From Rathayibacter oskolensis (lineage in GTDB: Bacteria; Actinomycetota; Actinomycetes; Actinomycetales; Microbacteriaceae), in NCBI RefSeq assembly GCF_900177245.1, contig NZ_FXBM01000002.1, positions 372,001 to 436,000 of the forward strand: DNA of 64,000 nucleotides, given 5' to 3'. The translations under genes and the position numbers were made by a program. The notes beneath the pieces are model-generated. The model saw only the letters and a program-made list of their open reading frames with translations. It did not search any database and had not been told where the DNA came from. Positions 2,586 to 34,896 of the stretch are shown here, piece by piece; position 1 is the stretch's first letter, and each line of letters opens with the position of its first letter.

Positions 2586-3227
2586 ATGACCCAGCGAACC
2601 GCTTCCCCCGCCCGCCCGACCTGGCCCGCCCGCGCCTGCGTGGCCGTGATCGGCGGGCTCCTGCTCACCGGCGTGGCGACCGCCGCCTCCGCCGCCGAGT
2701 ACGGCGAGGACGCCGTCGACGTGACGGTCGACATCGCCGCCGTCGACGAGCCGGGCGTGCTCGCGATGACCGTCGACGGCACGAACGCGGCGCTGACCGA
2801 GAACGGGTCGACCGAGACCGTCCGCCGGTTCACCGGGCAGCTGCCGGCCGTCACGGTCACGGACACGCGCACGGCCGAGGAGATCCCCGACGGAGCAGGC
2901 TGGTACGTGCTCGGCTCGGCGACCGACTTCAGCGGGGACGAGGGGCAGGAGCCGATCGGCGCCGAGTACCTGGGCTGGACGCCCGAGCTCGTCGACGGCG
3001 GCGACTCCGGTCTCGTGGCCGAGGGCGATCAGGTCGACACCGTCCTCGACGAGGGCCCCGACGCCGTCGGCCTGGTCGACCAGGAGCTGCTCGCACTGGC
3101 CCTCGACTCCGAGGCCGTCGCGACGGAGGGCTCGTGGACCGTCGCGGCCGACCTCACCCTGAAGACCGAGGCCGACGTCGAGCCCGGCGCCTACTCCTCC
3201 GTGCTGACCCTCTCGCTGTTCGAATGA
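2586..3227 (+). CDS. Small secreted protein, WxL-like beta-sandwich
   Basis: 213 aa with a strong ribosome binding site (GAGGAGGA) 5 nt before the ATG. A Sec signal peptide spans residues ~1-36, ending ATAASAA before EYGEDAVDV. The mature part is acidic, with alternating hydrophobic strands (VDVTVDIAAVDEPG, VTVTDTRTAEEIPDG, GWYVLGSATDFSG) and ends WTVAADLTLKTEADVEPG...LTLSLFE. This resembles WxL-type or related surface beta-sandwich domains of Gram-positive bacteria, but the match is by pattern only and no enzymatic motif is visible. Its stop overlaps the start of the GH43 gene (ATGA), so the two are translationally coupled, implying a joint role at the cell surface such as substrate or wall binding. 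Confidence 0.75.
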   Translation: MTQRTASPARPTWPARACVAVIGGLLLTGVATAASAAEYGEDAVDVTVDIAAVDEPGVLAMTVDGTNAALTENGSTETVRRFTGQLPAVTVTDTRTAEEIPDGAGWYVLGSATDFSGDEGQEPIGAEYLGWTPELVDGGDSGLVAEGDQVDTVLDEGPDAVGLVDQELLALALDSEAVATEGSWTVAADLTLKTEADVEPGAYSSVLTLSLFE

Positions 3228-10224: not shown

Positions 10225-13200
10225 TCAGGAGGCGCGCTCGGAGCGTCGCGCGCGACGACCGGCGAGTCGGAGCCACAGCCCGCCCACGAGCGAGAGCGCC
10301 CCGAGAAGCGCGAGACCACTCACGCCCTCGACTCCGGTGGCTGCAAGACCGCGGCCCTGCGGCGAGCGCTCACTCGCCCCCGGGGCGGCGTCGGCCCCCG
10401 AGGCGGGCCCACCCGAGGCCGGCCCACCCGGGGCGGGTCCGGCGCCCGTCCCGCCGACGGCTCCGCTGCCCGTCCCGCTCCCGAGGGGCGGGCCGTCGTC
10501 GGCGACGACCGTCAGCGTGCCGGCGACGTACTCGACCTCGTAGTCGGGATGCTCGAAGCCGCTGCACTGCACCGCCTCCGGGTAGACCCCCGCTGGCGTC
10601 TCTGCGGTGACGTCGACCGCGCAGGTCGGGTCGAGTCCGAGCGACGCGAGCGTGTCGCCGTCGTTGAGGAGGGAGTACTCGGGAGCGACGACGGGCGGCT
10701 CCGAGCCCGCGACCATCTCGACGTCGGGCGCGATGACGAGGAGGTAGGTCGGATCGACGATCAGCCTCGTGCTCCGCGAGACGTAGCGTCCCTCGGAGGG
10801 CGTCTCGCCCGTCGCGTTGTAGACGAGGACCCGGTAGAAGACGCCGTTGTTGCTCATGCGCGTGTTCAGCCGGTAGGTGGACGACTGCGCGAGCGGGATG
10901 GGCGTGAAGGTCCAGTTGTCGACCGACGAGTACCACTGGTACCGCACGTCGGGGCTGCCGCTCGCGTCGACGTGCAGGGTCCGGTAGGAGCCCGCGGTGA
11001 CGTAGGTGGAGCCGCCCCAGTACTCCTGGACGCGGGGCGCGACCTTCTCGACGCTGATGATCTGCGTCTCGCGCTCGGCCGGCGGGAAGAACGCCCGTCC
11101 GGCCTGGTCGGCGTGGACGACGCACTCGCCGGCGAAGGGGAGGTCGATGGTCGCGGTGAACTCCACCCGGCCGTCCTCGCTCACGGTGCACCAGAGGCTG
11201 CCCGGGTCGGTGGAGAACACGACCGGTTCGCCCGACGCCCCGCCGGAGGCGTACACGTCGTACGCCTCGCCGACCCGTCCCGGGGCCGGCGGGTCGGACT
11301 CGAAGCGGATCTCCTGCGTCACCGCCTCGACGGTGAGGCTGGCGGGGCGGTAGTCGATCTCGTAGCGCGGCGAGCTCTGACCCGAGCACTCGACGGGGTA
11401 CGTCCCGGGCGGTAGCTCGGGGTCGGCCGAGGGTCGGGAGTCGCAGCGCAGGTCGCCGCTGAGGGAGTCGGGGCCGTCTCCGAGCCGGAAGCCCTCGTCG
11501 CCGGTCCCGTAGTCGGCCCCGAACGCGGGAGCGTCGGTGCCGTAGGACATCCGCGCGTCGCGGGCGGTCACGGTGAGCGGAGCCGGCAGCACGGTGACCT
11601 CGGCGGTGTCGGAGGAGCTCTCCCCGAAGACGCTGGCCGCGACGGCTCGGAACCGGGTGCCGGTGTCGGTGCGCACCGGCGGCTGGTAGCCGGTGCCCGT
11701 CGCCCCGGGGATGTCCTCGAAGGGCGCGCCGGCCTCCGCCGACCGCTGCCACCGCAGCGACGTGCGGGGTCCGTCGGCGACGGCGGCCGAGAGGGGTGCG
11801 GGGGTGTCTCCGTAGGTGATGGTGGACGACTCCGGCTGCGTGGTGAAGACCGGGGCCCCCGCCGAGCGCACGACGACGGTCGCAGTGCCCGTGCTCGGCC
11901 TGATCTCCTCGGTGCGCGACGAGGCGCCGGAGTACGCGGCGGAGACGCGGATCACGCTGGTCTGCGGGAAGCTCAGGGTCGCGCCGGCGCGGCCGTCGAC
12001 GACCGGAACCCGGGCGATCGTCGTCGGCGCCTCCGACCCGTCTGCCGGAGCGCTCGTGAACGTCAGCTCGCCCGCGTCGATGGTGCGCCCGTCGCCCCGG
12101 GTCACGGTGGCGCTCAGCTCGACGTCGTCGCCGGCGTAGGGCGTCGACGGAGAGGCCTCGATCACCGTGGTCGTCGTCACGACGGCCGGCGCCTCGACCG
12201 ACTGGGCGGTGGAGGCGCTGCTCGAGAGGAACCCGATGCGCTCGGCGTCCGCGCCCGGGTAGCGCACCTGCACGGTCAGTCCGCCTGCGGGCCGGACGCC
12301 GAGCGGGATCTCGACCGCTCCGTTCGAGAGTGTCCCGGTCAGCACCTCGTCGCCGGTGCGGAGCTCGACCGCACCCACGGGCACGGGGCCGCCGTCGACG
12401 CCGGCCACGCGGACGGTGGCGACGAGCTCGTCGGACACGTAGGCGGGGGACGGGGCGATCGTCACCGTCGTGACGGTCGGGTAGAGCGGGAAGACCTGCA
12501 CGTTCGGACCGTCCTGGTCGGTGCTGCCGTTGCGCAGCGTGCCCGAGCGCTGCTGGTCGGTCGGCGGGTTCGGCGAGATGTAGGGCGGGAGGTAGTTCGC
12601 TCCGCCCCCGCCGCCACCGGAGCCGCCGTTGGTGCCGCCGCCCCCGCCTCCGCCGCCGTAGAGGCCGCCGCCACCACCGCCCGCGTACGCGGCGCCGAGG
12701 GAGGCGTTGCCCGCCCGGCCCCCCGCGAGGTAGGTACCCGGAGCACCGGCAGAGCCGGAATCGAAGAAGCCGCTGTAGCCCGCGGCACCGCCGGAGCCGC
12801 CGCCGGAGGACGTGCCGGGGTTGCCGCCGGCTCCGTCGCGCGCGTCGTTGGCGCCTCCGTCACCGCCCTTCGACCCCGCAGCCCCGCCGCCGCCGCCCGT
12901 GGACTCGGTGGTGTAGTAGTTGCCGGCGTCGCCGCCGCCGCCCCCTCCGCCGGCGACCGCCAGGAAGGCGTCTTTCGGGAACGCGGAGGCGGGGCTCCCG
13001 CCGCCCGGGCAGTACGGCGCGGGGTCGATCGTCGAGACGAACGAGCCGTTGCCGCCGCTGCCCGAGTAGGTCCGGCCACCCCCCGGGAGGAGCGTGGACG
13101 CGCCGGCCAGCCAGAGCCGCTGGCCGGGGAGGACCTGGACGACGGCCTCGGTGACGCCGGCGGCTCCCGGTGCTCCGGGGGCCGCCCTCCCGGGAACGGG

Positions 13201-13422
13201 GGATCCCGCCTGGCCCCTCTGCGCGATCACGAGCATCCGCGCGAAGTGCACGCTGTCGGGGATGTCGACGACCCCGGTCGCGCACAGCCCGTTGACCTCG
13301 GCCACCGGTTCGTCCGCCCGGGCCGACGGAGCGGCCGCGGCCGCCGCGACGAGGCCGAGGATCAGCGCCGCGCACAGGGCGAAGGCGGACGATCTCTGGG
13401 GGCGGGGGCGTGTCGGGCTCAC
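10225..13422 (-). CDS. Glycine-rich, Ig-like sortase-anchored surface protein
   Basis: 1065 aa with GTG start. Signal peptide 1-37 (SARADEP cleavage area). Residues ~60-290 are extremely glycine-rich with long GGGG runs, in the style of the glycine-rich regions of ALK/LTK-type proteins; they probably form a polyglycine-II helix bundle. Residues ~315-520 hold two Ig-like repeats (TTVTIAPSPAYVSDELVATV; TTTVIEASPSTPYAGDDVELSA). Two MBG-like modules follow (SYGTDAPAFGADYGTGDEG ~605; a second ~905-985). A Pro/Gly linker leads to LAATG (~1030), a hydrophobic segment and a basic tail: a cell-wall sorting signal of the LAXTG type used by class E sortases. No sortase gene is in the window. It is a likely adhesin or surface scaffold, and the neighbouring polysaccharide locus fits a biofilm role. 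Confidence 0.85.
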   Translation of the reverse strand: MSPTRPRPQRSSAFALCAALILGLVAAAAAAPSARADEPVAEVNGLCATGVVDIPDSVHFARMLVIAQRGQAGSPVPGRAAPGAPGAAGVTEAVVQVLPGQRLWLAGASTLLPGGGRTYSGSGGNGSFVSTIDPAPYCPGGGSPASAFPKDAFLAVAGGGGGGGDAGNYYTTESTGGGGGAAGSKGGDGGANDARDGAGGNPGTSSGGGSGGAAGYSGFFDSGSAGAPGTYLAGGRAGNASLGAAYAGGGGGGLYGGGGGGGGTNGGSGGGGGGANYLPPYISPNPPTDQQRSGTLRNGSTDQDGPNVQVFPLYPTVTTVTIAPSPAYVSDELVATVRVAGVDGGPVPVGAVELRTGDEVLTGTLSNGAVEIPLGVRPAGGLTVQVRYPGADAERIGFLSSSASTAQSVEAPAVVTTTTVIEASPSTPYAGDDVELSATVTRGDGRTIDAGELTFTSAPADGSEAPTTIARVPVVDGRAGATLSFPQTSVIRVSAAYSGASSRTEEIRPSTGTATVVVRSAGAPVFTTQPESSTITYGDTPAPLSAAVADGPRTSLRWQRSAEAGAPFEDIPGATGTGYQPPVRTDTGTRFRAVAASVFGESSSDTAEVTVLPAPLTVTARDARMSYGTDAPAFGADYGTGDEGFRLGDGPDSLSGDLRCDSRPSADPELPPGTYPVECSGQSSPRYEIDYRPASLTVEAVTQEIRFESDPPAPGRVGEAYDVYASGGASGEPVVFSTDPGSLWCTVSEDGRVEFTATIDLPFAGECVVHADQAGRAFFPPAERETQIISVEKVAPRVQEYWGGSTYVTAGSYRTLHVDASGSPDVRYQWYSSVDNWTFTPIPLAQSSTYRLNTRMSNNGVFYRVLVYNATGETPSEGRYVSRSTRLIVDPTYLLVIAPDVEMVAGSEPPVVAPEYSLLNDGDTLASLGLDPTCAVDVTAETPAGVYPEAVQCSGFEHPDYEVEYVAGTLTVVADDGPPLGSGTGSGAVGGTGAGPAPGGPASGGPASGADAAPGASERSPQGRGLAATGVEGVSGLALLGALSLVGGLWLRLAGRRARRSERAS

Positions 13423-13607: not shown

Positions 13608-14792
13608 GTGGCTTCTCGCACCCGCGCACTCTCAGTCCTCGCACTCGCCGCCGTGGTCGCGACGACGGCAGGGTGCACCCCGACCGCGAAGGGGCCCGTC
13701 GCGGCGTGCGTCGTGCGCCCCGCGGCCCAGATCGTCCCCGAGCAGGGCGCGCTGTTCGGGGTCAACCTCGACTGGGGATCGCAGACGATCGAGGAGTACT
13801 CGCGCCACCTGGGACAGCGGCCGGCCGTCGCGGTCGCCTTCGCCGATCTGCCGTTCACCGACGTGGAGCGTGAGGAAGTGCGCTCGGCCGCTGCGCAGCT
13901 CCGGGTGAACGGAGGCACGCTCCTGCTCACCCTCGAGTCGATCGACGGTCTCGCTGCGGTGACCGACGCCGTCGCATCGGACATCGCCCGTCTGGCGGCG
14001 TCCGTCAACCAGACCGGCGTGCCGGTGATCATCCGCTTCGCGCACGAGATGAACGGCTCCTGGTACGCCTGGGGTCAGCAGCCCGCCGCCTACGTCGAGG
14101 CCTTCCGGCGGGTCGCCGAAGCGGTGCACACCGAGGCACCCGGCACCGCGATGATGTGGGCTCCGAACAACGCCGACGGCTACCCGTTCGAGGGCGGAGT
14201 CTCGGCCGCGCAACCCGGTACCGCCGACTTCGCCCTGCTCGACACGACCCGGGACGGCGCACTGAGCCTCGACGACGATCCCTACGCTCCCTACTATCCG
14301 GGCGACGACGCCGTCGACTGGGTCGGCATGTCGCTCTACCACTGGGGGTCGGCCCATCCGTGGGGCGAGAACGAGATGCCGGAGGAGGGCAAGTTCGCCG
14401 CGCAGCTCACCGGTACCTACGACGGCGCGGCGGGCGACGAGAGCGCCGCGCCGGACTTCTACGAGACCTACGGTGTCGAGCACGGCAAGCCGGTGGCCAT
14501 CCCCGAGACGGCCGCGCTGGTCGTTCCCCGCGGGGACCCGGCTGGGGAGCTGGCGATCAAGCAGGCGTGGTGGCGGCAGGTGCTCTCCGCCGAGACCGCG
14601 GCGCGCTTCCCGAATCTGAAGATGATCAACTGGTTCGAATGGGAGAAGTTCGAGCCCGAGGTGCGCGATGAGGTGTCCTGGTCGGTCGTCGAGGACGAGC
14701 AGACGCGCCGCGCCTTCCGCGCCGACCTTCCTGCGGGGCTCGTCTACTCCGACCTCGCGGTCCGGTGCACGGGAGCTCCGTCGGAAGATTGA
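13608..14792 (+). CDS. GH26-like lipoprotein glycosidase
   Basis: 394 aa; the GTG start gives a compact lipoprotein signal (residues 1-19, lipobox TTAGC with Cys ~20). The mature domain resembles GH26 endo-mannanase/lichenase TIM barrels: RFAHEMNGSWYAWG carries the acid/base Glu (~147), NADGYPFEG follows, and IPETAAL carries the candidate nucleophile Glu (~302). WFEWEKFEPEVR near the end is an aromatic-rich cleft segment. It is the first of three GH26-like genes around a polysaccharide synthase and probably trims or modifies the nascent polymer at the outer membrane face. Its gene is separated from the following operon by 146 bp with a weak hairpin, so it may be its own unit. Activity on mannan is not proven by sequence. 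Confidence 0.82.
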   Translation: MASRTRALSVLALAAVVATTAGCTPTAKGPVAACVVRPAAQIVPEQGALFGVNLDWGSQTIEEYSRHLGQRPAVAVAFADLPFTDVEREEVRSAAAQLRVNGGTLLLTLESIDGLAAVTDAVASDIARLAASVNQTGVPVIIRFAHEMNGSWYAWGQQPAAYVEAFRRVAEAVHTEAPGTAMMWAPNNADGYPFEGGVSAAQPGTADFALLDTTRDGALSLDDDPYAPYYPGDDAVDWVGMSLYHWGSAHPWGENEMPEEGKFAAQLTGTYDGAAGDESAAPDFYETYGVEHGKPVAIPETAALVVPRGDPAGELAIKQAWWRQVLSAETAARFPNLKMINWFEWEKFEPEVRDEVSWSVVEDEQTRRAFRADLPAGLVYSDLAVRCTGAPSED

Positions 14793-14802
14793 GACCGCTC
14801 CA

Positions 14803-14822
14803 CCTCCCCCGTCAGGGGGGCC
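14803..14822 (+). terminator. Weak GC hairpin after the GH26 lipoprotein gene
   Basis: CCTCCCCC and GGGGGG around a GTCA loop, with no T-run. It may attenuate read-through into the phosphatase operon rather than stop it. Confidence 0.3.
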
Positions 14823-14938
14823 CACAGGGTGAGCGATCGATGGACTGGCGGTCGGCGTTCCCTGCGGCCGATACGGTCGACAGGACAGGACCTGACGGAG
14901 TCCTCGGCCCCTGCTGATCGTTCTCGAAGGGATGCTCC

Positions 14939-16102
14939 ATGGTCGGTGACACCGCCCCGGATCCGCGTGCAGACGCCCTCTCCGCCCTGGAGCTGATGGG
15001 CTCGCCCGCTGAGGAGCGCTTCGACCGGATCACGCGGATGGCTCGCGATCTCTTCGGGGTCCCGATGGCCGAGATCCACCTCCTCGACGAGAGCACGCTC
15101 TTCACGAAGTCGCCGCAGAACCCGGGCTGGCCGCTCGAGTACCCGCGGGAGGGAACCTTCTGCGACGCGACGCTCCAGAAGGGGTCGATGCTCATCATCT
15201 CCGACCTCGGCACCGATCCGGTCTTCGCGGAGCACGTCAACGTCCGAGGAGCGCCGCACGTGCGGTTCTACGCGGGAAGGCCTCTGAGCGTCGACGACGG
15301 TCTCCAGCTCGGCACGATCTGCCTCATGGACTTCGTGCCGCGCGAGCTGACTCAGGACGAGGAGGTGCTGCTCGACGAGTTCGGGAGCTGGGTCGAGCGC
15401 GAGCTGCGCGATTCGGCCGAGCGCGACCGGGCCGCCGAAGTGCAGGCCCTCCTGCTCCCCCCGGCGCTCGACCACCCGGACGGCTACGTCTTCGCCGGCA
15501 TGTCCGTCCCGCGCCTGCAGGTCGCGGGGGACTTCTACGACTGGTGGGCGGGCGACGGATTCGTCGACATCGTCCTGGCCGATGTCATGGGGAAGGGCAC
15601 CGCGGCCGCCATCGTCGCGGCGAGCATCCGCTCGGCGTTCCACGCCCGCACCGGCGAGAGGCCCGCCCGGGCCGTCGCCGGGGTGAACGGTCAGCTCCTC
15701 CGCGACTTCAGCGCGACCGGCACCTTCGCGACGCTCTTCCACTGCCGCCTCGAGACCGAGACGGGGCGCCTGGACTTCGTCGATGCCGGCCACGGACTCT
15801 CCGTCGTCCTCCGCGCCGACGGATCCTTCGAACGGCTCGCCTCGGTCGGGCTCCCGCTGGGCATCGCCGAGGACGGCGGCTGGCTGACCCAGTCGGTCGA
15901 GCTCGCACCCGGCGATGCGCTCGTGTCCTTCACCGACGGCGTCCTCGACCTCTATGACGGGACTCTCGACTCGGTGGCCGAGGTCACCGGGCTCGCGCGC
16001 GCCTCGGCGAGCTCGGACGAGTTCTTCGCTGCCCTTCGCCACCTCGCGCGCGGCGAGAAGGCCTCGGACGACGTGACCGTCCTCGTGGTGAGCCGCACGT
16101 GA
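14939..16102 (+). CDS. GAF-PP2C (SpoIIE/RsbU-type) serine phosphatase
   Basis: 387 aa, cytoplasmic. The ribosome binding site GAAGGGA lies 8 nt before the ATG. An N-terminal GAF sensor (~10-145; ITRMARDLFGVPMAEIHLL, GTICLMDF) is joined by a short helix (AERDRAAEVQALLLPPAL) to a PP2C/SpoIIE domain (~160-387). The metal-binding and catalytic motifs are intact: VAGDFYDWW, VLADVMGKG, VDAGHGL, SFTDGVLDLYD and DDVTVLVV. Enzymes of this kind remove phosphate from STAS-domain anti-anti-sigma factors. It is the first gene of a run of six overlapping genes (through 22597) that also encodes a STAS protein and an RsbW-like kinase, so those are its probable partners. The GAF domain may bind a small molecule or a redox signal; the ligand is unknown. 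Confidence 0.9.
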   Translation: MVGDTAPDPRADALSALELMGSPAEERFDRITRMARDLFGVPMAEIHLLDESTLFTKSPQNPGWPLEYPREGTFCDATLQKGSMLIISDLGTDPVFAEHVNVRGAPHVRFYAGRPLSVDDGLQLGTICLMDFVPRELTQDEEVLLDEFGSWVERELRDSAERDRAAEVQALLLPPALDHPDGYVFAGMSVPRLQVAGDFYDWWAGDGFVDIVLADVMGKGTAAAIVAASIRSAFHARTGERPARAVAGVNGQLLRDFSATGTFATLFHCRLETETGRLDFVDAGHGLSVVLRADGSFERLASVGLPLGIAEDGGWLTQSVELAPGDALVSFTDGVLDLYDGTLDSVAEVTGLARASASSDEFFAALRHLARGEKASDDVTVLVVSRT

Positions 16103-18546
16103 GGCGCAGCGCGCTCCGACGGTTCGCCCCCTCCGCCGGGAAGGCGGTGCTGGCCGTCGTCGCGGCGGCGGTGCTCCTCGCGGGTCCCGCCGTCGCCTCG
16201 GTCGCCGACGACTCCGTCCTCTCGCCGCCGACGGGCGCCTACTTCGGCTCGAGCCTCGACTGGAGCAGCGACAGCGCTGCGGAGCAGACCGATCGTCTCG
16301 GCCGACCCGCGGCGGTCCTCGAGCACGTCGCCTCCGTCCCGATCACCGAGGCCGAGGTCGACTACCTCGCCCAGTTCATGAGGCAGGCGGAGGGGGAGGG
16401 GGCGCTCGCCGCGGTCACGCTCCGCCCCGTCGGCGGTCTCGGGCAGTTCGGTCAGGAGGAGGCGAGGGCCGCCGTCGATGCGCTCGCCCGCGCCCGCGAC
16501 GGACAGGACCTCCCGCTCTTCGTCCGCTTCGCTCCCGAGATGAACGCGAGCTGGACGGCATGGGGATTCGCGCCCGACGAGTACATCGCGGCGTTCCGGC
16601 TCTTCTCCGAGGTCCTGCACTCCGATCTGCCCGATGCCGTCGTGGTCTGGTCGCCGGCCGCGGGTGAGTCGTATCCCTTCGCCGAGGGTGGCTCGACCGA
16701 CGATCCTGCACTCGACACGGACGGCAGTGGATCGCTCGACGCGGGCGACGACCCCTACGGGCCCTACTACCCGGGTGACGATGCGGTCGACTGGGTCGGA
16801 CTGTCCGCCTACCACGACCCCAGCGGAGGCGGGGCCCCGAGGAACGCGGTCGCCGCCGACGGCGCCCTCGAGGACGATCTCGATGGCGAGGGCGACCTCG
16901 CGTTCTACGAGCGGTTCGCTGAGAGCGCCGGCACGCCGATGATGCTCGAGACCGCCGCGTTCTACAGCCCGGGGGCCGGCGGGCCGGCCGAGCTCGAGAT
17001 CAAGCAGGACTGGTGGCAGCAGGTGATCGCCGCCACCTCGGGCGACGAGCATCCGCTGATCGACGTCGTGCTCTGGCGAGACTCCTCCTCGGCCCGTGCC
17101 GTGGTCGGCGAGGTCGTCATCGACTGGAGCCTCTCCGGCTCGGACACGATCTCCTCGGCGTTCGCCGCCGACGCGGAGGCGAGCGAGCTCGTCTTCGGCC
17201 CGGTCTACGCGCCGTTCACCTCTTCATCCACGGTGCAGTCGGCGGCAGGGACGATCAGCGGGGCGGCTGCCTGGATCCTGGTCGCGGCGGTCCTCCTGGC
17301 GGCGATCGCCCTGACCGGCTGGGGACTGCTGCGCGGTCGGAGCGGCCGGCTCGCCTACGACGGCCCTCCGAATCGCGATCTCCGCATCGACTACCTCCGC
17401 GGTGTCGCCATCGTCTTCGTCGTCGTCAACCACATCGCGCTCGTCTCGGTCTGGCAGAACCTGACGCAGGAGGCGATCGGCATGGTGTCGGGGGCCGAGC
17501 TGTTCGTCCTGCTCTCGGGCGGCGTCCTCGGGATGGTGCACCGTCCGAAAGTGCTCGGCGGCGGGATCGGCGAGGTCACCCTCCGCACCGAGGCCCGCGC
17601 TTGGAAGCTCTACGTCACGGCCCTGGTGGTCGTCGTGATCGTCGGCCTCGTGAGCCTCGTCGGATTCGTGAACTCCACTCCGGCGACCACCTACGTCGAC
17701 CAGGGGACGGGCGCGGCGGGGAGCGAGGCGACAGGCCGCGTCTACGACCTCTACACGAACGTCGACAGCCTCCTCCGCTACCCGGTCGACCCGTCGATCA
17801 TCCTCGACCTCGCCCTGCTCCGGCTCGGGCCCTGGCAGGTGAACGTGCTCGGCCTGTACGTGGTGATGCTCGCGATCGCCCCCCTGATCCTCTGGGCTCT
17901 GTCGCGTGGGCGATGGGCGGTCGTCCTGCTGGTGAGCTGGGCCGTCTACGTGCTGCAGATGTTCCTGCACGTGCGGCTCCTGCCCTCGCAGTTCGAGGAC
18001 TCGTTCCCGCTGCTCACGTGGCAGGCCCTGTTCGTGACGGGGATGGTCGCGGGCTTCCACCGGCGCGAGATCCTGGCCTGGTTCGCGACCCGGATCGGTC
18101 GGATCGTCCTCGCGGTCGCGGTGATCACCACCGTGGGGCTGGCGGTCTTCTCGTGGAACAACCCCTATCTCTCCAGCTCCTGGGATCTGCGCCTCGGGCT
18201 GATCCCCGCCAACACGTTCTCGGACATCTATGCGGTCGCCTTCCAGCGGACCACCCTCGACCCGGGCAGGGTCGTCAACGTCCTGCTCGTGGTGATCACC
18301 GCCTACGCCGCACTCAGCGTGCTCTGGAAGCCGGCGCAGCGCCTCCTCGGCTGGTTCTTCATCCCCCTGGGGCAGGCGACCCTCTACGTGTTCGTCATGC
18401 ACGTCGTGTTCGTCCTGATCGTCGCCAACATCCCTCCTCTGCGCGAAGGGAACACCGTGGTCAACTCGCTCGCCTACCTCGCCGTGCTCGGTCTGCTCTG
18501 GGTCATGGTGCGGACCCGCTTCCTCTACCGGATCGTGCCCCGATGA
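16099..18546 (+). CDS. GH26-like domain fused to OpgC-type membrane acyltransferase
   Basis: 815 aa; the GTG overlaps the phosphatase stop by 4 bp. An N-terminal signal/anchor helix (~15-37) leads into an extracytoplasmic GH26-like domain (~45-370) with candidate catalytic Glu in RFAPEMNASWTAWG and MLETAAFY; the usual His before the first Glu is Pro here. A transmembrane helix (~385-405) is followed by an OpgC-type acyltransferase (~425-815) with DLRIDYLRGVAIVFVVVNHI and about ten membrane helices. OpgC proteins transfer succinyl groups to periplasmic glucans. Fusion of glycosidase and acyltransferase in one chain suggests the polymer is cut and O-acylated as it emerges. The synthase gene overlaps it directly. 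Confidence 0.85.
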   Translation: MRRSALRRFAPSAGKAVLAVVAAAVLLAGPAVASVADDSVLSPPTGAYFGSSLDWSSDSAAEQTDRLGRPAAVLEHVASVPITEAEVDYLAQFMRQAEGEGALAAVTLRPVGGLGQFGQEEARAAVDALARARDGQDLPLFVRFAPEMNASWTAWGFAPDEYIAAFRLFSEVLHSDLPDAVVVWSPAAGESYPFAEGGSTDDPALDTDGSGSLDAGDDPYGPYYPGDDAVDWVGLSAYHDPSGGGAPRNAVAADGALEDDLDGEGDLAFYERFAESAGTPMMLETAAFYSPGAGGPAELEIKQDWWQQVIAATSGDEHPLIDVVLWRDSSSARAVVGEVVIDWSLSGSDTISSAFAADAEASELVFGPVYAPFTSSSTVQSAAGTISGAAAWILVAAVLLAAIALTGWGLLRGRSGRLAYDGPPNRDLRIDYLRGVAIVFVVVNHIALVSVWQNLTQEAIGMVSGAELFVLLSGGVLGMVHRPKVLGGGIGEVTLRTEARAWKLYVTALVVVVIVGLVSLVGFVNSTPATTYVDQGTGAAGSEATGRVYDLYTNVDSLLRYPVDPSIILDLALLRLGPWQVNVLGLYVVMLAIAPLILWALSRGRWAVVLLVSWAVYVLQMFLHVRLLPSQFEDSFPLLTWQALFVTGMVAGFHRREILAWFATRIGRIVLAVAVITTVGLAVFSWNNPYLSSSWDLRLGLIPANTFSDIYAVAFQRTTLDPGRVVNVLLVVITAYAALSVLWKPAQRLLGWFFIPLGQATLYVFVMHVVFVLIVANIPPLREGNTVVNSLAYLAVLGLLWVMVRTRFLYRIVPR

Positions 18547-20561
18547 ACGCCGGGACGGCCGTCGACACCGGCCCCGGGACGGAGAGCACCCTCACCTCGC
18601 CCGGCCGCATGCTCCTGCTGCGCATCATCGTGGTCCTGACGATCGTGCTGGGGGTGAACTACGTCGGCTGGCGGTGGCTCTACTCGCTCAACTGGGACGC
18701 GTGGTGGATCGCCGTCCCGCTCGTCGCAGCCGAGACCTACAGCCTCATCGACGTCTGCCTGTTCGGGATGACCATGTGGCGGGCACGGGGGCGGCCCGCG
18801 CCGCCGGCGCCTCCGGAGGACGCGACGGTGGACATCTTCATCACGACCTACAACGAGCCGATCGAGCTGGTGATGACGACGGCGCTCGCCGCTCAGCGCG
18901 TGCGCTTCCCGCACGCGACCTGGGTCCTCGACGACGGCGACCGCGCCGAGATGCGCGCGGCGGCCGAGGCGGCGGGGCTGGGCTACATCACCCGCTCGGC
19001 CGACTGGAAGGACCGCCCCCGGCACGCGAAGGCCGGCAACCTCAACAACGCGCTCGAGCAGACGACGGGTGAGTACCTCCTCATCCTCGATGCCGACCAG
19101 ATCCCCCGACCCGAGATCCTCGACAACACTCTCGGCTACTTCCGCGACGACGCGGTCGCGCTCGTCCAGACGCCCCAGGTGTTCTCGAACGTCGCGACCG
19201 GCGATCCGCTCGGGAGCCAGGCGCCGCTCTTCTACGGCCCGATCCAGCAGGGCAAGGACGGCTGGAACGCGGCGTTCTTCTGCGGCTCGAACGCGGTGCT
19301 GCGGCGCGAGGCGCTGATGCAGCTCGGCATCGCCGGCTACGTCCGCGAGCTCGACCGGAGCATCGCGTCGGCGCTGCGGACAGCGGCCCGCGCCGTGAGC
19401 AAGGCCCGGTCGCACCCCGCGGCCGCCGACGCGACCGTCCGCGCGGCGCTCGACGACGTCGGCGCCGCTATCAAGGAGGCGCAGACGGCCATCAGCGGAG
19501 GGGCGCCGATCGCGTCGGTCACCTACGACCTGCACCGCCGGGTCGACGCCGCGAGCTACTCGCTCGTCGCCTCCGACGTCGCGGGCCTCGAAGAGGACCT
19601 CGCCGAGATCCGCGCGCTCGCCCGCGCCTCGGGCGGCGCGGACTCGGTCGACACGATCGTCGACATCGAGCAGATCGTCCAGGGCCTCTCGGATCGCGAG
19701 CTCTCGCCGCTGAACGCCCTCGAATCGGTGCAGGCCGTGCTGCAGAGCATCGCCATCGACCGGCCGGGGGAGGCGCAGCCGATCATGCCGCTCGCCACCA
19801 TCTCGGTCACCGAGGACATGGCGACCTGCATGCGCCTGCACGGGCTCGGCTGGAAGAGCGTCTACCACCACGAGCTCCTCGCCGACGGTCTCGCTCCGGA
19901 GGACGCGGGGACGATGCTCACCCAGCGCCTCCGCTGGGCCCAGGGGACGATGCAGGTCTTCCTCCGCGAGAACCCGCTGCTGCAGAAGGCGCTCAGCGTC
20001 CCGCAGCGACTGATGTACTTCGCGACGATGTGGAGCTACATCAGCGGCTACGCGGCGGTGGTGTACTTCGCGGCGCCGATCATCTTCCTGGTGCTCGGGA
20101 TCCTGCCGGTCGCGTCCGACGCGTTCGACTTCTTCATCCGCTTCATCCCCTTCATGATCGTCAATCAGCTCCTCTTCCTGGTCGCCGCGAAGGGGACCCC
20201 GACCTGGAGGGGGCAGCAGTACAGCCTCGCCCTCTTCCCGGTCTGGATCGAGGCCTGCACGACCGCGATCAACAACGTGTTCCTCAGGATCCCCCTCGGC
20301 TTCGCAGTCACGCCGAAGACGCGACAGGAGTCGACGGGGACTCCGTGGCGTCTGATCAGGATCCAGCTCGTGGTGATGGTCCTGCTCGTCATCGCGATCG
20401 TCGTGGGCTGCCTCCACCTGTTCTTCGACGGCGCGGAGCCGATCGGCACGGGGGTGAACATCGCCTGGGCGGTGTTCGACCTCGTGGTGCTGAGCGTCCT
20501 CTTCCGCGCCGTCGCCTACCAGGGCTTCGAGCCCGTCACCACGAAGAAGGAGACAGCATGA
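18543..20561 (+). CDS. BcsA-like processive family 2 glycosyltransferase
   Basis: 672 aa, membrane-bound. Two N-terminal membrane helices precede a GT-A domain with the processive-synthase motifs: LDDGDRAEM (~129), LDADQIP (DxD, ~182), FFCGSNAVLRR (~245), TED (catalytic base, ~421) and QRLRW (~460), then C-terminal membrane helices (~485-655). These are the motifs of cellulose-synthase-type enzymes that polymerise and export a beta-linked glycan. Two departures: about 140 residues of Ala-rich, helical sequence are inserted between FFCGS and TED, where BcsA has about 25, and there is no C-terminal PilZ domain for c-di-GMP. The product is unknown; GH26-like neighbours suggest a beta-mannan, beta-glucan or mixed polymer. 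Start and stop overlap both neighbours by 4 bp. Confidence 0.9.
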   Translation: MNAGTAVDTGPGTESTLTSPGRMLLLRIIVVLTIVLGVNYVGWRWLYSLNWDAWWIAVPLVAAETYSLIDVCLFGMTMWRARGRPAPPAPPEDATVDIFITTYNEPIELVMTTALAAQRVRFPHATWVLDDGDRAEMRAAAEAAGLGYITRSADWKDRPRHAKAGNLNNALEQTTGEYLLILDADQIPRPEILDNTLGYFRDDAVALVQTPQVFSNVATGDPLGSQAPLFYGPIQQGKDGWNAAFFCGSNAVLRREALMQLGIAGYVRELDRSIASALRTAARAVSKARSHPAAADATVRAALDDVGAAIKEAQTAISGGAPIASVTYDLHRRVDAASYSLVASDVAGLEEDLAEIRALARASGGADSVDTIVDIEQIVQGLSDRELSPLNALESVQAVLQSIAIDRPGEAQPIMPLATISVTEDMATCMRLHGLGWKSVYHHELLADGLAPEDAGTMLTQRLRWAQGTMQVFLRENPLLQKALSVPQRLMYFATMWSYISGYAAVVYFAAPIIFLVLGILPVASDAFDFFIRFIPFMIVNQLLFLVAAKGTPTWRGQQYSLALFPVWIEACTTAINNVFLRIPLGFAVTPKTRQESTGTPWRLIRIQLVVMVLLVIAIVVGCLHLFFDGAEPIGTGVNIAWAVFDLVVLSVLFRAVAYQGFEPVTTKKETA

Positions 20562-20890
20562 CGTTCACGACCGAGACGATCGAGCCCGGGATCACCGTCA
20601 TCCACGGCGAGGGCAAGCTGAACATGGTGGCGGCGCCGGAGCTGCGCGACATCGTCAAGCGCTCGATCGACGACGGGAGGTCGCGCGTCGTCGTCGACCT
20701 CAGCTCCGTGTCCTTCCTCGACTCCTCCGGACTGGGGGCCCTCGTCGGATGCCTCAAGAGCACGCGGCAGGCCGGAGGCGACCTGCGGATCTCGGCGCCG
20801 AGCAAGCAGGTCTCGATGGTTCTGAAGCTCTCGAACCTCGACCGGGTCCTCGCGCAGTTCGAGACCCCGGAAGACGCCTACCGTGACTGA
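20558..20890 (+). CDS. STAS-domain anti-sigma factor antagonist (RsbV/SpoIIAA-like)
   Basis: 110 aa, one STAS domain. The phosphorylatable-serine motif is VSFLDSSGLGALVGCL, with Ser at ~54-55, as in SpoIIAA and RsbV. It overlaps the synthase gene by 4 bp and the kinase gene by 8 bp. Known proteins of this type are phosphorylated by an RsbW kinase and reset by a PP2C phosphatase; both kinds of enzyme are encoded in this operon. With no sigma factor gene nearby, its target may be the synthase or the acyltransferase rather than a sigma factor; that is inference. Confidence 0.92.
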   Translation: MTFTTETIEPGITVIHGEGKLNMVAAPELRDIVKRSIDDGRSRVVVDLSSVSFLDSSGLGALVGCLKSTRQAGGDLRISAPSKQVSMVLKLSNLDRVLAQFETPEDAYRD

Positions 20891-21296
20891 GCGCACCCTG
20901 CTGTTCAGGAGCCCACCCGAGACGGTCGACGTCGTGCACGCCGCCCTCGAGTCGCTCTGGGACGAGCGCTCCGACATCGACGAGATGGACCGGATGATGT
21001 TCGAGACGGCTCTCATCGAGCTGACCGCCAACGTCATCCAGCACGGCTCGTCCTCGACCACGATCGTCTGCCGGCTCGAGATCGTCGCTGACGACCTCCA
21101 GCTGCGCGCCGAGCTCGTCGACACGGCCGATCCCCCGGGAATCGACACGGGGCCGCGCGAGATGCCGGACGAGTTCGCGGAGTCGGGCCGGGGCATAGCG
21201 TTCATCCAGGCGCTCGTGACCGCCTTCGACTACGAGCGCGCGGAGGGCCGCAACGTCTGGACCCTGAGCAAGGACCGTTCGCCGAGGGATTCGTGA
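20883..21296 (+). CDS. RsbW-like serine kinase (HATPase domain)
   Basis: 137 aa; GTG start. GHKL ATP-binding features: N-box ELTANVIQHG and G2-box ESGRGIAFIQALV. The G1-box is VDTADPPGI, a slightly degenerate form of the usual DxGxG. Such kinases phosphorylate the STAS partner and, in the classical systems, bind a sigma factor. Translation is coupled to the STAS gene (8-bp overlap) and to the following phosphatase gene (4-bp overlap). It completes the partner-switching trio in the synthase operon. Confidence 0.88.
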   Translation: MTERTLLFRSPPETVDVVHAALESLWDERSDIDEMDRMMFETALIELTANVIQHGSSSTTIVCRLEIVADDLQLRAELVDTADPPGIDTGPREMPDEFAESGRGIAFIQALVTAFDYERAEGRNVWTLSKDRSPRDS

Positions 21297-22597
21297 TGCG
21301 GTCCACCACCCGACCGCGATCGACCACCGCGGGCGCCGCCTCCCGGCTCTCCGCGGCGGCGATCGGGCTCGATGAGCAGTCGCCGCTCGTCAAGCAGATC
21401 CCTGTGGCCTTCCTCTTCGGGGTCGCGGTCGCGCTCAGCCTCCTCGTCCCGACGATCGAGGTGACCGATCCGGCCGCCCTCGTTCTCGCCACGGCGGCCA
21501 TGATCACGGCCACCGCCCTCGCCGCGGTCCTTCCGCGGATCGACCCGGGGGGACGAGCCGTCCTCGTCGTCCCCGTAGTGGACTTCCTCGTCGTGGGGGT
21601 CCTCCGGTTCGCCACCGGCGAGAGCGCCTCGATCTTCGCGTCGCTCGCGATCCTCCCGACCGTCTGGGTGGCCGCGTCCGCTGGACGCCGGAGTGTCGCG
21701 CTCGCTTTCGTGGGCATCTGCGCGGGACTCGTGGTGCCTTTCCTGCTCGGGTCGACTCTGGAGGAGAACCCCAACGAGTTGACCCGAGGGCTGTTCTCGG
21801 CGGTCGCCTTCGTCCTCGCCGGCGCCGTGGTCAACGACCTCGCGCGTCTCGCCCGAGCCCATGTGGAGGACGTCCGCGCGAGGGAGCGCAGCACCCTTCT
21901 GGAGCTCGACGAGGCGGCTCTCGTCCAGCAGGCGCTGCTGCCCAAGACGGACACCGACGCGGCGGGCTACGAGTTCGCCGGCGCCTGCCTGCCCTCCAAA
22001 GCCGTCGGCGGCGACTTCTTCGACTGGTACGCCGTCTCCGGAGGCACCGCCTTCACCCTGGGGGACGTGATGGGCAAGGGGGTCGGTGCCGGGATCATCG
22101 CCGCGACCGTCCGCGCGGTGATCCGCAGCGCCCGGAGTCACGAGGACCTCGCGGTCCCCCTCGACCGCGCTGCGGATGCTCTCTCCACCGATCTCGGCGA
22201 CACGGCCTCGTTCGCGACCCTCTTCCACGCTCGCCTGGATCACGTCAGCGGAGAGGTCCGCTACGTGGACGCGGGCCACGGGCTCACTCTGCACGTCCGG
22301 GCCGACGGCTCCTGGGAGCGCCTCGCGGCTCTGAACCTGCCCGTCGGCATCTGGAGCGACGAGGCCTGGAGCGTCTCGCGGGTGCTCCTCGAACCCGGTG
22401 ACTCTCTCGTCAGCTGCAGCGACGGCATCCTCGACCTCTACGACGGGACGGTGGAGTCGCTGCAGCACGTCGCCGAGATCGTCGCGGAGTCATCCGACTC
22501 CGCCGATGTCGTGTCCCGCCTGAGGGCTCTCACCGAGGCGTCTCTCGGTCGGGAGGACGACGTGACGGTCCTCGTGCTGCTGCGTCTCCCCGTCTGA
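21293..22597 (+). CDS. Membrane PP2C (SpoIIE/RsbU-type) phosphatase
   Basis: 434 aa from GTG; an ATG one codon later is equally possible. About six hydrophobic segments (~37-195) form a membrane sensor region without a recognisable ligand domain. A coiled linker (VEDVRARERSTLLELDEAALVQQALLP) leads to a PP2C domain (~200-434) with AVGGDFFDWY, LGDVMGKGVGAGI, VDAGHGLTLHV, SCSDGILDLYDG and DDVTVLVLL. The catalytic half is similar to the GAF phosphatase at the head of the operon, so the two look like paralogues with different inputs, one cytosolic and one membrane. Confidence 0.9.
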   Translation: MMRSTTRPRSTTAGAASRLSAAAIGLDEQSPLVKQIPVAFLFGVAVALSLLVPTIEVTDPAALVLATAAMITATALAAVLPRIDPGGRAVLVVPVVDFLVVGVLRFATGESASIFASLAILPTVWVAASAGRRSVALAFVGICAGLVVPFLLGSTLEENPNELTRGLFSAVAFVLAGAVVNDLARLARAHVEDVRARERSTLLELDEAALVQQALLPKTDTDAAGYEFAGACLPSKAVGGDFFDWYAVSGGTAFTLGDVMGKGVGAGIIAATVRAVIRSARSHEDLAVPLDRAADALSTDLGDTASFATLFHARLDHVSGEVRYVDAGHGLTLHVRADGSWERLAALNLPVGIWSDEAWSVSRVLLEPGDSLVSCSDGILDLYDGTVESLQHVAEIVAESSDSADVVSRLRALTEASLGREDDVTVLVLLRLPV

Positions 22598-22623
22598 GGC
22601 GCAGTCCTCCCGCTGCGCGCGCG

Positions 22624-23892
22624 TCAGCTCGGCCGCTGCGCGAGTGCCGCCGCGAAGGCCTGGGCCGACGCGGTCGAGCTGGCGATCCGCCAGTCGACCT
22701 CCTTGTCGTGGTCGAACCAGACGAAGCCCGTGACGTCGCTCTGCGCGGAGAGATACGAGACCAGCGCTGCGTTCCACTCCGACTTCGCCCCGCCGGTCTC
22801 GGCCGACGCCGTCTCGGCGACGAGGATCGGCGAGCCCGGCGCCAGCGCGCGCAGCTGGGTGAGCCCCGGACCGAACAGGGCCGACGGCGACGTCCACGAG
22901 CTCCACGCGGCGCTCGTGCCCCAGTTGTAGCCGTCGAGCGCGACGACGTCGACGTACGCGGCGCCCGGGTACAGGCCCTGGAGCGGGGTGGACCCGCTGT
23001 ACGGGACGTTGGGGCTCCACACCCACGACACGTTCGTCGCGCCCTGAGCGGCGACCACGTCGTGAACGTGTCGCCAGGCCTCTGCGTACGATCCCGCGGC
23101 GTTGCCGTTCACTCCCTCCGACCACGGGTACCAGTCGCCGTTCATCTCGTGCGCGTAGCGGAGGAGGACGGGCTCGCCCCAGGCGGCCAGCGCCGCGCCC
23201 CACTGCCGCAGGTACGGGTCGTGGTCGCCGGCGAGGATCCGGGCGTTCGAGTAGGCGGGCTGGTCCACGCCGCCGCCCCAGCGCCACGGCTCCCAGGTGA
23301 GGATGCTCGTCGCTCCCCGTGCCGCGACGCTGTCCAGCCCCGTGAGCGGGGTGGCCTGGCCGAAGTCCTGGTAGGACAGCACCAGAGCGGGGCTCTCGCC
23401 GACGAGTACGGCGGCCCGGTCGAGCTCGGCGTTCGCCGACGCGCCGCCGGGGGTGGTCAGGCCGAAGCGCAGCCGGGCCGTGCTGACGGCCGGCGCCGTG
23501 CCGGCGGGGCTGGTCGTGGATCCGGGGCCGGCCGTGGTGGAGGCGCCGCCGAGTGTGACGATGAACGCAGCGGACACGCTCCGCCCGCCGGCCCTCGCCG
23601 TCACCTGGAGCGTTCCGGTCGCCGTCGCGGGGATCGTGATCGTCGCGGCGAAGGAGCCTGTCGTCGACGTGGTGAACGGTGCGGTCGCAGCTCCTGCGGT
23701 CACGGTGCCGGTGGTCCTCTTGGCGAACCCGGTGCCGGTCACGACCGTCGTCGTCCCTCCGGGCCCGGAGGAGGGGGAGAGGGCGATGGCTGCAGGGGCC
23801 GCCGACGCGGGCGCCGAGACGCCTCCGAGGAGGATCGCCGCAGCGAGCATCAGGCCGGCCGCGGCAGCCACGGCGGAGCGGAGGACGGACAT
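22624..23892 (-). CDS. Secreted TIG-GH26 beta-mannanase-like protein
   Basis: 422 aa; ribosome binding site GAGGAG 7 nt before the ATG. Signal peptide ~1-32, then an IPT/TIG Ig-like domain (~33-115; LSPSSGPGGTTTVVTGTGF), a Thr/Gly/Pro linker, and a GH26-like domain (~137-422) with the acid/base Glu in RYAHEMNGDWYPWSEG, WVWSPNVPY, and candidate nucleophile Glu in ILVAETASAE. It is convergent with the phosphatase gene, 26 bp apart, so it is transcribed separately but belongs by content to the polysaccharide locus. Likely role: release or remodelling of the polymer outside the cell, or attack on plant mannan. Confidence 0.85.
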   Translation of the reverse strand: MSVLRSAVAAAAGLMLAAAILLGGVSAPASAAPAAIALSPSSGPGGTTTVVTGTGFAKRTTGTVTAGAATAPFTTSTTGSFAATITIPATATGTLQVTARAGGRSVSAAFIVTLGGASTTAGPGSTTSPAGTAPAVSTARLRFGLTTPGGASANAELDRAAVLVGESPALVLSYQDFGQATPLTGLDSVAARGATSILTWEPWRWGGGVDQPAYSNARILAGDHDPYLRQWGAALAAWGEPVLLRYAHEMNGDWYPWSEGVNGNAAGSYAEAWRHVHDVVAAQGATNVSWVWSPNVPYSGSTPLQGLYPGAAYVDVVALDGYNWGTSAAWSSWTSPSALFGPGLTQLRALAPGSPILVAETASAETGGAKSEWNAALVSYLSAQSDVTGFVWFDHDKEVDWRIASSTASAQAFAAALAQRPS

Positions 23893-34497: not shown

Positions 34498-34501
34498 CCC
34501 G

Positions 34502-34574
34502 TGGCTCCGACGGGCGTCGATCCCGTGACCTCACGATTTTCAGTCGTGCGCTCTACCAACTGAGCTACAGAGCC
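34502..34574 (-). tRNA. tRNA-Phe (GAA)
   Basis: 73-nt cloverleaf: acceptor GGCTCTG/CGGAGCC with discriminator A; anticodon loop CTGAAAA; T-arm ACGGGATCGACGCCCGT. CCA is not encoded. Confidence 0.95.
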
Positions 34575-34628
34575 GTGCACCGAGGCGGCCGGACCTCCTC
34601 GAAGAGAGAGCAGGCCGTCTCGAAGAAA

Positions 34629-34652
34629 AGGCCCTTCCTCTCGGAAGGGCCT
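34629..34652 (-). terminator. Terminator of tRNA-Asp
   Basis: Perfect 9-bp stem GGCCCTTCC / GGAAGGGCC with a 4-nt loop, followed on the minus strand by TTTTC. It separates tRNA-Asp from tRNA-Phe, so the two are probably transcribed separately. Confidence 0.8.
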
Positions 34653-34657
34653 CTCTG

Positions 34658-34731
34658 CGACCCTGACGGGACTTGAACCCGCGACCTCCGCCGTGACAGG
34701 GCGGCACGCTAACCAGCTGCGCTACAGGGCC
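34658..34731 (-). tRNA. tRNA-Asp (GTC)
   Basis: 74-nt cloverleaf: acceptor GGCCCTG/CAGGGTC with discriminator G; anticodon loop CTGTCAC; T-arm with GGTTCAAGTCC. CCA is not encoded. Confidence 0.95.
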
Positions 34732-34823
34732 TCGTTGCGAAGACAAGCATACTGCCTTCGAGGCTATTCGATTTCCACGCCCCGACCCTCGCGGGCCGGT
34801 GCACTTGCCAGCAGTCCCATCCG

Positions 34824-34896
34824 TGACCCCAACGGGATTCGAACCCGTGCTGCCGCCGTGAAAGGGCGGTGTCCTAGGCCACTAAACGATGGGGCC
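34824..34896 (-). tRNA. tRNA-Glu (TTC)
   Basis: 73-nt cloverleaf: acceptor GGCCCCA/TGGGGTC with discriminator A; anticodon loop CTTTCAC; T-arm GGTTCGAATCC. CCA is not encoded. No strong terminator is seen between it and tRNA-Asp, so these two could share a transcript. Confidence 0.95.

What the first reader, a model, noticed from the sequence alone, without database searches (positions are those of the whole stretch)
13608..23892. Polysaccharide synthase operon with a built-in partner-switching module and no sigma factor
Six overlapping genes encode a GAF-PP2C phosphatase, a GH26-OpgC fusion, a BcsA-like synthase, a STAS protein, an RsbW-like kinase and a membrane PP2C phosphatase, flanked by two more GH26-like genes. 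STAS, kinase and PP2C are the three parts of a partner switch that normally frees a sigma factor. Here none is encoded nearby, and the switch genes are translationally coupled to the synthase. The closest known idea is control of Vibrio fischeri syp polysaccharide by SypE/SypA, where a STAS protein acts outside sigma control. I infer that the phosphorylation state of this STAS protein gates polymer synthesis or acylation.
Basis: partly seen in the sequence, partly recalled or inferred. Interest (0 to 1): 0.88.

Follow-up and report, generated by a model that had tools for sequence, protein, structure and literature searches.

The report
Protein switch controlling a polysaccharide synthase
In this bacterium and in distant relatives, a three-protein switch that normally controls gene-reading factors is instead tied to a cellulose-like polymer-making enzyme that lacks the usual c-di-GMP sensor, which suggests a second way for bacteria to turn matrix production on and off.

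Summary
In detail: six overlapping genes (14939-22597) encode GAF-PP2C, GH26-OpgC, BcsA-like synthase, STAS protein, RsbW-like kinase and membrane PP2C, flanked by GH26 genes; no sigma-like ORF was found in the window. STAS+kinase+PP2C recur beside the synthase in 75 of 80 best-scoring related loci, 35 of 40 loci from evenly drawn genomes, 10 of 10 proteobacterial plasmid loci read and one Nostoc plasmid, against 0 of 20 other cellulose-synthase-like loci. OpgC is optional (17 of 80). The clade lacks PilZ (0 of 48; controls 13 of 16) and has an insert beside the TED motif. In 3 of 11 genomes the linked kinase is the only free-standing one and the only region-3 sigma is a strong, primary-like one. 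Five paralogous synthases keep an adjacent STAS that lost the predicted phospho-serine, without kinase or PP2C nearby. Best reading: the STAS protein is a phosphorylation-controlled partner of the synthase, in the role c-di-GMP/PilZ plays in BcsA. Linkage is shown; binding and its sign are inferred. New variant of a known kind.

The parts
13608..14792 (+). g1: GH26 lipoprotein (TAGC lipobox), not part of the overlapping run
   Evidence: Pfam PF02156 E 5.8e-10; lipobox-like match and one hydrophobic segment
14939..16102 (+). g2: GAF-PP2C (SpoIIE/RsbU-type) phosphatase, presumed input that dephosphorylates the STAS protein
   Evidence: Pfam GAF 1.3e-14, SpoIIE 5.1e-35
16099..18546 (+). g3: GH26-like domain fused to OpgC acyltransferase; accessory
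   Evidence: Pfam OpgC_C 4.7e-63; GH26 local-profile hit; OpgC in 17 of 80 related loci
18543..20561 (+). g4: BcsA-like GT2 synthase without PilZ
   Evidence: Pfam Cellulose_synt 3.9e-19, no PilZ; TIGR03030 7.9e-101 but 338 bits against a cut-off of 699; nearest solved structures are BcsA; DDG, DAD, CGSNA, TED, QRLRW present
19296..19808 (+). 171-residue stretch (g4 residues 252-422) between the CGSNA and TED motifs; candidate docking region
   Evidence: 166-173 residues in 80 of 80; 163-183 in 39 of 40 evenly drawn loci and 107 in L180, not rechecked; 60-64 in 10 of 10 proteobacterial; 18 in the 9 of 16 controls where the pattern could be read
20558..20890 (+). g5: STAS protein (RsbV/SpoIIAA-like), presumed switchable partner of the synthase
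   Evidence: Pfam STAS 2.7e-20; TIGR00377 over cut-off
20723..20725 (+). Ser56 codon of g5, predicted phospho-acceptor (first serine of DSSGLG)
   Evidence: Ser56 in 118 of 118 main-clade STAS, window included; assignment by the SypA Ser56 and recalled RsbV/SpoIIAA numbering
20883..21296 (+). g6: RsbW-like serine kinase
   Evidence: Pfam PF13581 8.8e-13; Glu46, Asn50, Gly102, Gly104 in 92 of 92
21293..22597 (+). g7: membrane-anchored PP2C (SpoIIE-type) phosphatase
   Evidence: Pfam SpoIIE 3.6e-32; hydrophobic segments 30-184
22627..23892 (-). g8: secreted TIG-GH26 protein, convergent
   Evidence: Pfam GH26 6.3e-14, TIG 9.7e-5

Best explanation
This is a partner switch whose output is an enzyme instead of a sigma factor. 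Proposed working: the kinase g6 phosphorylates the STAS protein g5 on Ser56; the two PP2C phosphatases (g2 with a GAF sensor, g7 in the membrane) remove the phosphate when they receive their signals. Unphosphorylated STAS binds the cytosolic face of the BcsA-like synthase g4, perhaps at the insert beside the TED motif, and holds it active; phosphorylation releases STAS and stops polymer synthesis. The switch takes the role that c-di-GMP and PilZ play in BcsA. Shown here: gene set, linkage in three phyla (Cyanobacteria by one record), lack of PilZ, the insert, conserved active-site and acceptor residues, and paralogs whose STAS lacks Ser56. Inferred: direct STAS-synthase binding, its site and sign, the signals, and the polymer (a beta-linked glucan or mannan).
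For: Trio in 75 of 80 best-scoring loci, 35 of 40 loci from evenly drawn class and order genomes (the sets may overlap), 10 of 10 proteobacterial plasmid loci read of 17 records, and 1 Nostoc plasmid; 0 of 16 other actinobacterial cellulose-synthase-like loci and 0 of 4 chosen bcsA plasmid loci. Commonest order PP2C-GT2-STAS-kinase, 50 of 80; STAS domain starts within 60 bp of the synthase stop in 72 of 80. In proteobacteria the trio lies on either strand and apart from the synthase yet stays linked. Switch-linked synthases form one clade of a 50-sequence midpoint-rooted tree, support 1.0. PilZ in 0 of 48 against 13 of 16 controls. No GGDEF match at E up to 1e-10 in 3 of 11 genomes. One region-3 sigma match and no other free-standing RsbW-like kinase in G004, G011, G016. 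Paralogs L201-L205: GT2+STAS+GH26, no kinase or PP2C hit in the fetched stretches (5 of 5); Ser56 is Ala or Pro and Asp55 is lost (5 of 5); STAS over the Pfam cut-off in 4 of 4 tested; synthase motifs kept. Precedents: SiaC binds and activates SiaD (abstract); SypA-S56A permits wrinkled colonies despite SypE (passage).
Against: No binding, phosphorylation or polymer data; no complex could be modelled. Distances in the insert track the kinase (0.31, bootstrap 0.16 to 0.42) rather than STAS (0.10, -0.08 to 0.32). In the paralogs the neighbouring Ser57 is kept in 5 of 5, so phosphorylation there by a kinase encoded elsewhere is not excluded; they are five loci in two lineages. 12 of 17 genomes have further region-3 sigma matches, and G001 and G007 each have one free-standing kinase elsewhere. 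Of the 16 controls 3 have neither PilZ nor the trio, so absence of PilZ does not by itself imply the switch. Exceptions: L015 (contig edge) and L023 lack STAS and kinase; L176 (3.3-kb contig) lacks both; L200 lacks all three; L199 lacks kinase and PP2C though its STAS keeps DSSGLG; L009, L016, L076, L171, L186 lack a PP2C profile hit.
Confidence: 0.62

Rival explanations
1. Canonical wiring with the synthase in the place of the sigma factor: the kinase itself binds and silences the synthase, and unphosphorylated STAS draws the kinase away.
For: This is the RsbV/RsbW/SigB logic (recalled). Partial distance correlation of kinase with insert is 0.31 (0.16 to 0.42), near that of kinase with STAS, 0.36 (76 loci); phosphatase with insert is 0.13 (-0.01 to 0.40) (64 loci).
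Against: Paralogous synthases keep STAS and have no kinase hit nearby (5 of 5), and L199 has GT2+STAS without kinase in its 20 kb; under this model a STAS without a kinase has no role. The correlations have no sound significance test, and both segments evolve fast.
Confidence: 0.15
2. Ordinary partner switch: the kinase holds a sigma factor encoded elsewhere, and the linkage to the synthase is co-regulation.
For: RsbV/RsbW homologs normally do this; g5 scores over the anti-sigma-antagonist model TIGR00377. 12 of 17 genomes have more than one region-3 sigma match, and sigma-like ORFs lie in the fetched flanks of 3 of 80 loci.
Against: In G004, G011 and G016 there is one region-3 match, of about 100 bits and so primary-like, and the only free-standing RsbW-like kinase is the synthase-linked one. 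Nearest region-2 sigma match: 44 kb in G008, 181 kb in G004, other contigs in G001. It does not explain the missing PilZ, the insert or the paralogs.
Confidence: 0.12
3. The switch controls OpgC or the GH26 enzymes and so decoration or trimming of the polymer.
For: OpgC lies in the window's operon; OpgC hits in 5 of 10 proteobacterial loci and annotated acyltransferases in three more.
Against: OpgC in 17 of 80 and 8 of 40, GH26 in 23 of 80 and 15 of 40, against STAS in 78 of 80 and 38 of 40.
Confidence: 0.04
4. The switch acts on another cytosolic target, such as a diguanylate cyclase (SiaD-like), that in turn affects the synthase.
For: SiaABCD works this way (abstracts); 8 of 11 genomes do have GGDEF matches.
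Against: No PilZ on the synthases, no GGDEF match in 3 of 11 genomes, and no diguanylate cyclase annotated in the nine annotated proteobacterial stretches read, although L123 has an EAL-domain gene (that gene table is incomplete).
Confidence: 0.07

Closest known systems
RsbU/RsbV/RsbW-SigB partner switch (Bacillus)
   Same: PP2C, STAS with DSS/DST acceptor, RsbW-like kinase in one operon (recalled)
   Different: No sigma factor in the operon; the conserved operon partner is a polysaccharide synthase
SypA/SypE (Vibrio fischeri syp)
   Same: STAS acts on polysaccharide-dependent biofilm below transcription, controlled at Ser56; target unknown (passages; a review passage puts its action at transcription)
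   Different: SypE is one kinase/phosphatase protein; no PilZ-less BcsA-like synthase unit is named in the passages seen
SiaABCD (Pseudomonas aeruginosa)
   Same: PP2C, kinase and anti-sigma-antagonist-like protein whose output is a directly bound enzyme (abstracts and outline)
   Different: Target is a diguanylate cyclase; acceptor is Thr68
HmpU/V/W (Nostoc punctiforme)
   Same: STAS is the output of a partner switch in hormogonium motility and polysaccharide; effector undefined (passages)
   Different: No synthase partner identified in the passages seen
BcsA cellulose synthase
   Same: GT2 catalytic motifs; nearest solved structures
   Different: BcsA carries PilZ and answers to c-di-GMP (recalled); here PilZ is absent, an insert is present and a partner switch is linked
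Klebsiella accessory block 3b (PMC12974863, passage)
   Different: A gene list; no mechanism in the passage seen, and its sequences were not compared here

Membership tests
Sigma-factor partner switch (RsbVW/SpoIIAA-AB type) | PP2C, STAS with conserved acceptor serine, and GHKL serine kinase encoded together | tested here: met
Sigma-factor partner switch (RsbVW/SpoIIAA-AB type) | Cognate sigma factor encoded with the switch | tested here: not met
   None found in the window; sigma-like ORF in the flanks of 3 of 80 loci
Sigma-factor partner switch (RsbVW/SpoIIAA-AB type) | Cognate alternative (region-3) sigma factor elsewhere in the genome | tested here: inconclusive
   More than one match in 12 of 17 genomes, one in 4 (G004, G007, G011, G016), none in G014, which lacks even a primary match; the window's own genome is not held
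BcsA cellulose synthase | GT2 motifs DDG, DxD, TED, QxxRW | tested here: met
BcsA cellulose synthase | PilZ domain | tested here: not met
   0 of 48 clade members; 13 of 16 controls
BcsA cellulose synthase | Score over the CelA model cut-off (TIGR03030) | tested here: not met
   338 bits against 699
BcsA cellulose synthase | Polymer is cellulose | not testable with these tools
   needs chemistry
SypA-type STAS output switch | STAS acts on a non-sigma target, active when unphosphorylated | tested here: inconclusive
   STAS without Ser56 stays with paralogous synthases; no functional data
SiaC-type enzyme-activating switch | Direct binding of the STAS-like protein to the enzyme | not testable with these tools
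   structure prediction switched off; it would not have taken complexes

The most novel reading that the evidence does not exclude
A clade of PilZ-less cellulose-synthase-like enzymes in Actinobacteria, Cyanobacteria and Proteobacteria uses a STAS protein as a phosphorylation-controlled subunit in place of c-di-GMP. It would be a polysaccharide synthase as the direct target of a partner switch, and a template for the unknown targets of SypA and HmpV. In a side branch the STAS has lost its acceptor serine and become a fixed subunit. The GGDLR patch shared by both kinds of actinobacterial STAS (R70, G74, L76, R77 in 118 of 118 and 5 of 5, D75 in 117 of 118 and 5 of 5) would face the synthase.
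Probability: 0.47. Interest if true: 0.86.

Novelty: new variant of a known kind. Interest (0 to 1): 0.78.

Why it matters
Bacterial cellulose-type synthases are known mainly through c-di-GMP control by PilZ (recalled). A second, phosphorylation-based control of the same kind of enzyme, kept in three phyla and found in genomes without a GGDEF match (3 of 11), would widen how matrix production is understood. It also turns an open question, what STAS outputs such as SypA and HmpV act on, into an experiment on a defined pair of proteins. Ten searches of open-licence PubMed Central papers (some searches listed only part of their hits) showed no title or abstract start that proposes a synthase as the target; most listed papers were not opened. 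One paper lists a similar gene block.

Tried and rejected
Acylation as the gated step: rejected because OpgC is absent from most loci. A sigma factor in trans: unlikely in G004, G011 and G016, not excluded elsewhere. Phmmer of the kinase against solved structures gave nothing useful (best E 0.22); STAS matched anti-sigma antagonists. Distance-correlation test for the partner of the insert: inconclusive and partly against my reading. Two apparent short inserts (121) were a pattern artefact and are 169; the 107 of L180 was not rechecked. The HMMs for STAS, kinase and PP2C were built from the loci themselves and lean towards this clade; they do find the cyanobacterial and proteobacterial sets, but a divergent regulator near a control synthase could be missed, and 5 of the 16 control stretches are 10-15 kb rather than 20 kb. 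The own-genome route was not open, so whole-genome statements concern relatives.
Full report
1. What is there. The window looks like a Rathayibacter: g4 is 95% identical to a protein of Rathayibacter sp. VKM Ac-2754. Pfam finds GH26, GAF+PP2C, OpgC, GT2/cellulose synthase, STAS, HATPase_c_2, PP2C and TIG+GH26 in the eight genes. Six genes from 14939 to 22597 overlap by 4-8 bp; the GH26 lipoprotein g1 ends 146 bp upstream and g8 is convergent. The residues of a working switch are conserved: STAS Asp55 and Ser56 in 91 of 91, kinase Glu46 and Asn50 in 92 of 92, PP2C Asp58 in 101 of 101 aligned domains, window included.

2. Does the set travel as a unit? A pattern scan of genome contigs with g4 found 455 relatives and kept the best 80. 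With profiles built from these loci, STAS is in 78 of 80, kinase in 78, PP2C in 76, all three in 75, GAF in 40, GH26 in 23, OpgC in 17. To get beyond the closest relatives I searched 394 genomes drawn evenly from the class and 396 from the order; 22 and 24 have matches at E up to 1e-100. Leaving out the closest relative G001, L103 (G231, trio present) and repeats, I fetched the other 40 main-clade matches: STAS 38, kinase 37, PP2C 36, all three 35, GH26 15, OpgC 8. The two sets may share loci (L161 and L082 have contigs of equal length). Relatives of a Pantoea synthase lie on 17 plasmid records; I examined 10 and all have the trio, and so has one Nostoc plasmid. Exceptions: L015 (contig edge), L023, L176 (3.3-kb contig), L199, L200, and five loci without a PP2C profile hit (L009, L016, L076, L171, L186).

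3. Controls. The 16 other actinobacterial synthase matches (fetched; 5 stretches are 10-15 kb) and four chosen bcsA plasmid loci have none of the three (0 of 20). PilZ is in 13 of the 16 and in 0 of 48 clade members, namely the window, 43 of the 80 loci and L001-L004; three controls have neither PilZ nor trio. Fisher tests give 4e-11 and 1e-16, but the sequences are related, so these are not true probabilities. In a midpoint-rooted tree of 50 synthases (19 actinobacterial and 10 proteobacterial switch-linked, 1 Nostoc, 20 controls) the switch-linked ones form one clade with support 1.0; two controls, L109 and L115, are next to it. The association is thus most simply old and single in origin, kept through changes of order and strand.

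4. The insert. Between the CGSNA and TED motifs the 9 of 16 controls where the pattern could be read have 18 residues; the 80 loci have 166-173, the 40 evenly drawn loci 163-183 except 107 in L180, the ten proteobacterial ones 60-64, Nostoc about 40 (counted on the alignment), the paralogs of section 6 127-134. It lies beside the catalytic TED motif, so on the cytosolic side (recalled BcsA topology).

5. Sigma factors. None was found in the window, and 3 of 80 loci have a sigma-like ORF in the fetched flanks. The nearest region-2 match is 44 kb from the synthase in G008, 181 kb in G004, and on other contigs in G001. Of 17 genomes, 4 (G004, G007, G011, G016) have a single region-3 match, strong and primary-like; 12 have more than one, G001 included (its second is weak and partial); G014 has none. 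Of 15 free-standing RsbW-like kinases (open frame up to 222 residues) in 11 genomes, 13 lie at synthase loci by comparison with the contig ranges, and in 9 of the 11 genomes there is no other; G001 and G007 have one elsewhere. GGDEF was not matched at E up to 1e-10 in G004, G005 and G016 and was in the other 8.

6. A natural experiment. Five genomes carry a further synthase, 52-55% identical to g4 over its N-terminal half, with DDG, DAD, CGSNA, TED and QRxRW intact. Each has a STAS gene next to it (over the Pfam cut-off in 4 of 4 tested) and a GH26 gene, with no kinase or PP2C hit in the fetched stretch (5 of 5). Here Ser56 is Ala (3) or Pro (2) and Asp55 is lost (5 of 5), while the main clade has Ser56 in 118 of 118 and the proteobacterial set in 10 of 10. 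Wider searches found only these five (5 of 376; 3 of 295), in two lineages by identity. So a STAS that lacks the predicted acceptor stays with the synthase where the enzymes that would modify it are missing. This is the strongest hint that STAS is the partner of the synthase and that the phosphate only controls it. Caveats: Ser57 is kept in 5 of 5; the acceptor assignment rests on numbering by analogy. The stretch around GGDLR (R70, G74, L76, R77) is kept in both actinobacterial groups (118 of 118, 5 of 5) but not in the proteobacterial proteins, whose insert also differs.

7. Result against this reading. With the other synthase segments held constant, distances in the insert follow the kinase (0.31, 0.16 to 0.42) more than STAS (0.10, -0.08 to 0.32); in 88.5% of bootstraps the kinase value is the higher (76 loci; similar, 64 loci). 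The test has no sound significance level, but it leaves room for a wiring in which the kinase touches the synthase.

8. Place among known systems. STAS proteins thought to have a non-sigma output are known: SypA, with unknown target (passages), HmpV (passages), and SiaC, which binds and activates the diguanylate cyclase SiaD (abstract). Ten literature searches (listed under Why it matters; listings seen, few papers opened) showed none that proposes a synthase as target; one Klebsiella paper lists a block like the proteobacterial layout (passage). I call it a new variant of a known kind: it works like a partner switch but no sigma factor is encoded with it, and the synthase is BcsA-like without being a PilZ-gated BcsA.

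Noticed in passing
L002-L004, L120-L126: Proteobacterial switch-linked synthases mostly carry QRFKY or QRYKY in place of QxxRW (8 of 10 by pattern), and L002-L004 have SED in place of TED; DUF3131 genes lie beside most. They may make a different polymer.
   Followed up: partly
L004, L120, L122: A globin gene and a large response-regulator gene follow the DUF3131 genes (annotation); L124 has a heme-NO-binding domain protein nearby. This hints at a gas or redox input.
   Followed up: no
L199, L201-L205: The FxVTPK pattern (F587, V589, T590, K592, invariant in the 44 sequences of A2) was not found in these synthases; in BcsA a similar motif forms the gating loop (recalled).
   Followed up: no
window 3134-6145 +: GH43 protein with a beta-xylosidase C-terminal domain and a CBM4/9 domain.
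   Followed up: no
window 10225-13422 -: 1065-residue protein with MBG_2 domains, upstream of and divergent from g1; perhaps a surface protein.
   Followed up: no
window 34501-34896 -: tRNA cluster Phe, Asp, Glu.
   Followed up: no
PMC8256260 (passage): Anabaena all4160 is described as a glycosyltransferase with an N-terminal STAS domain, a natural fusion that fits a direct STAS-glycosyltransferase relation.
   Followed up: no
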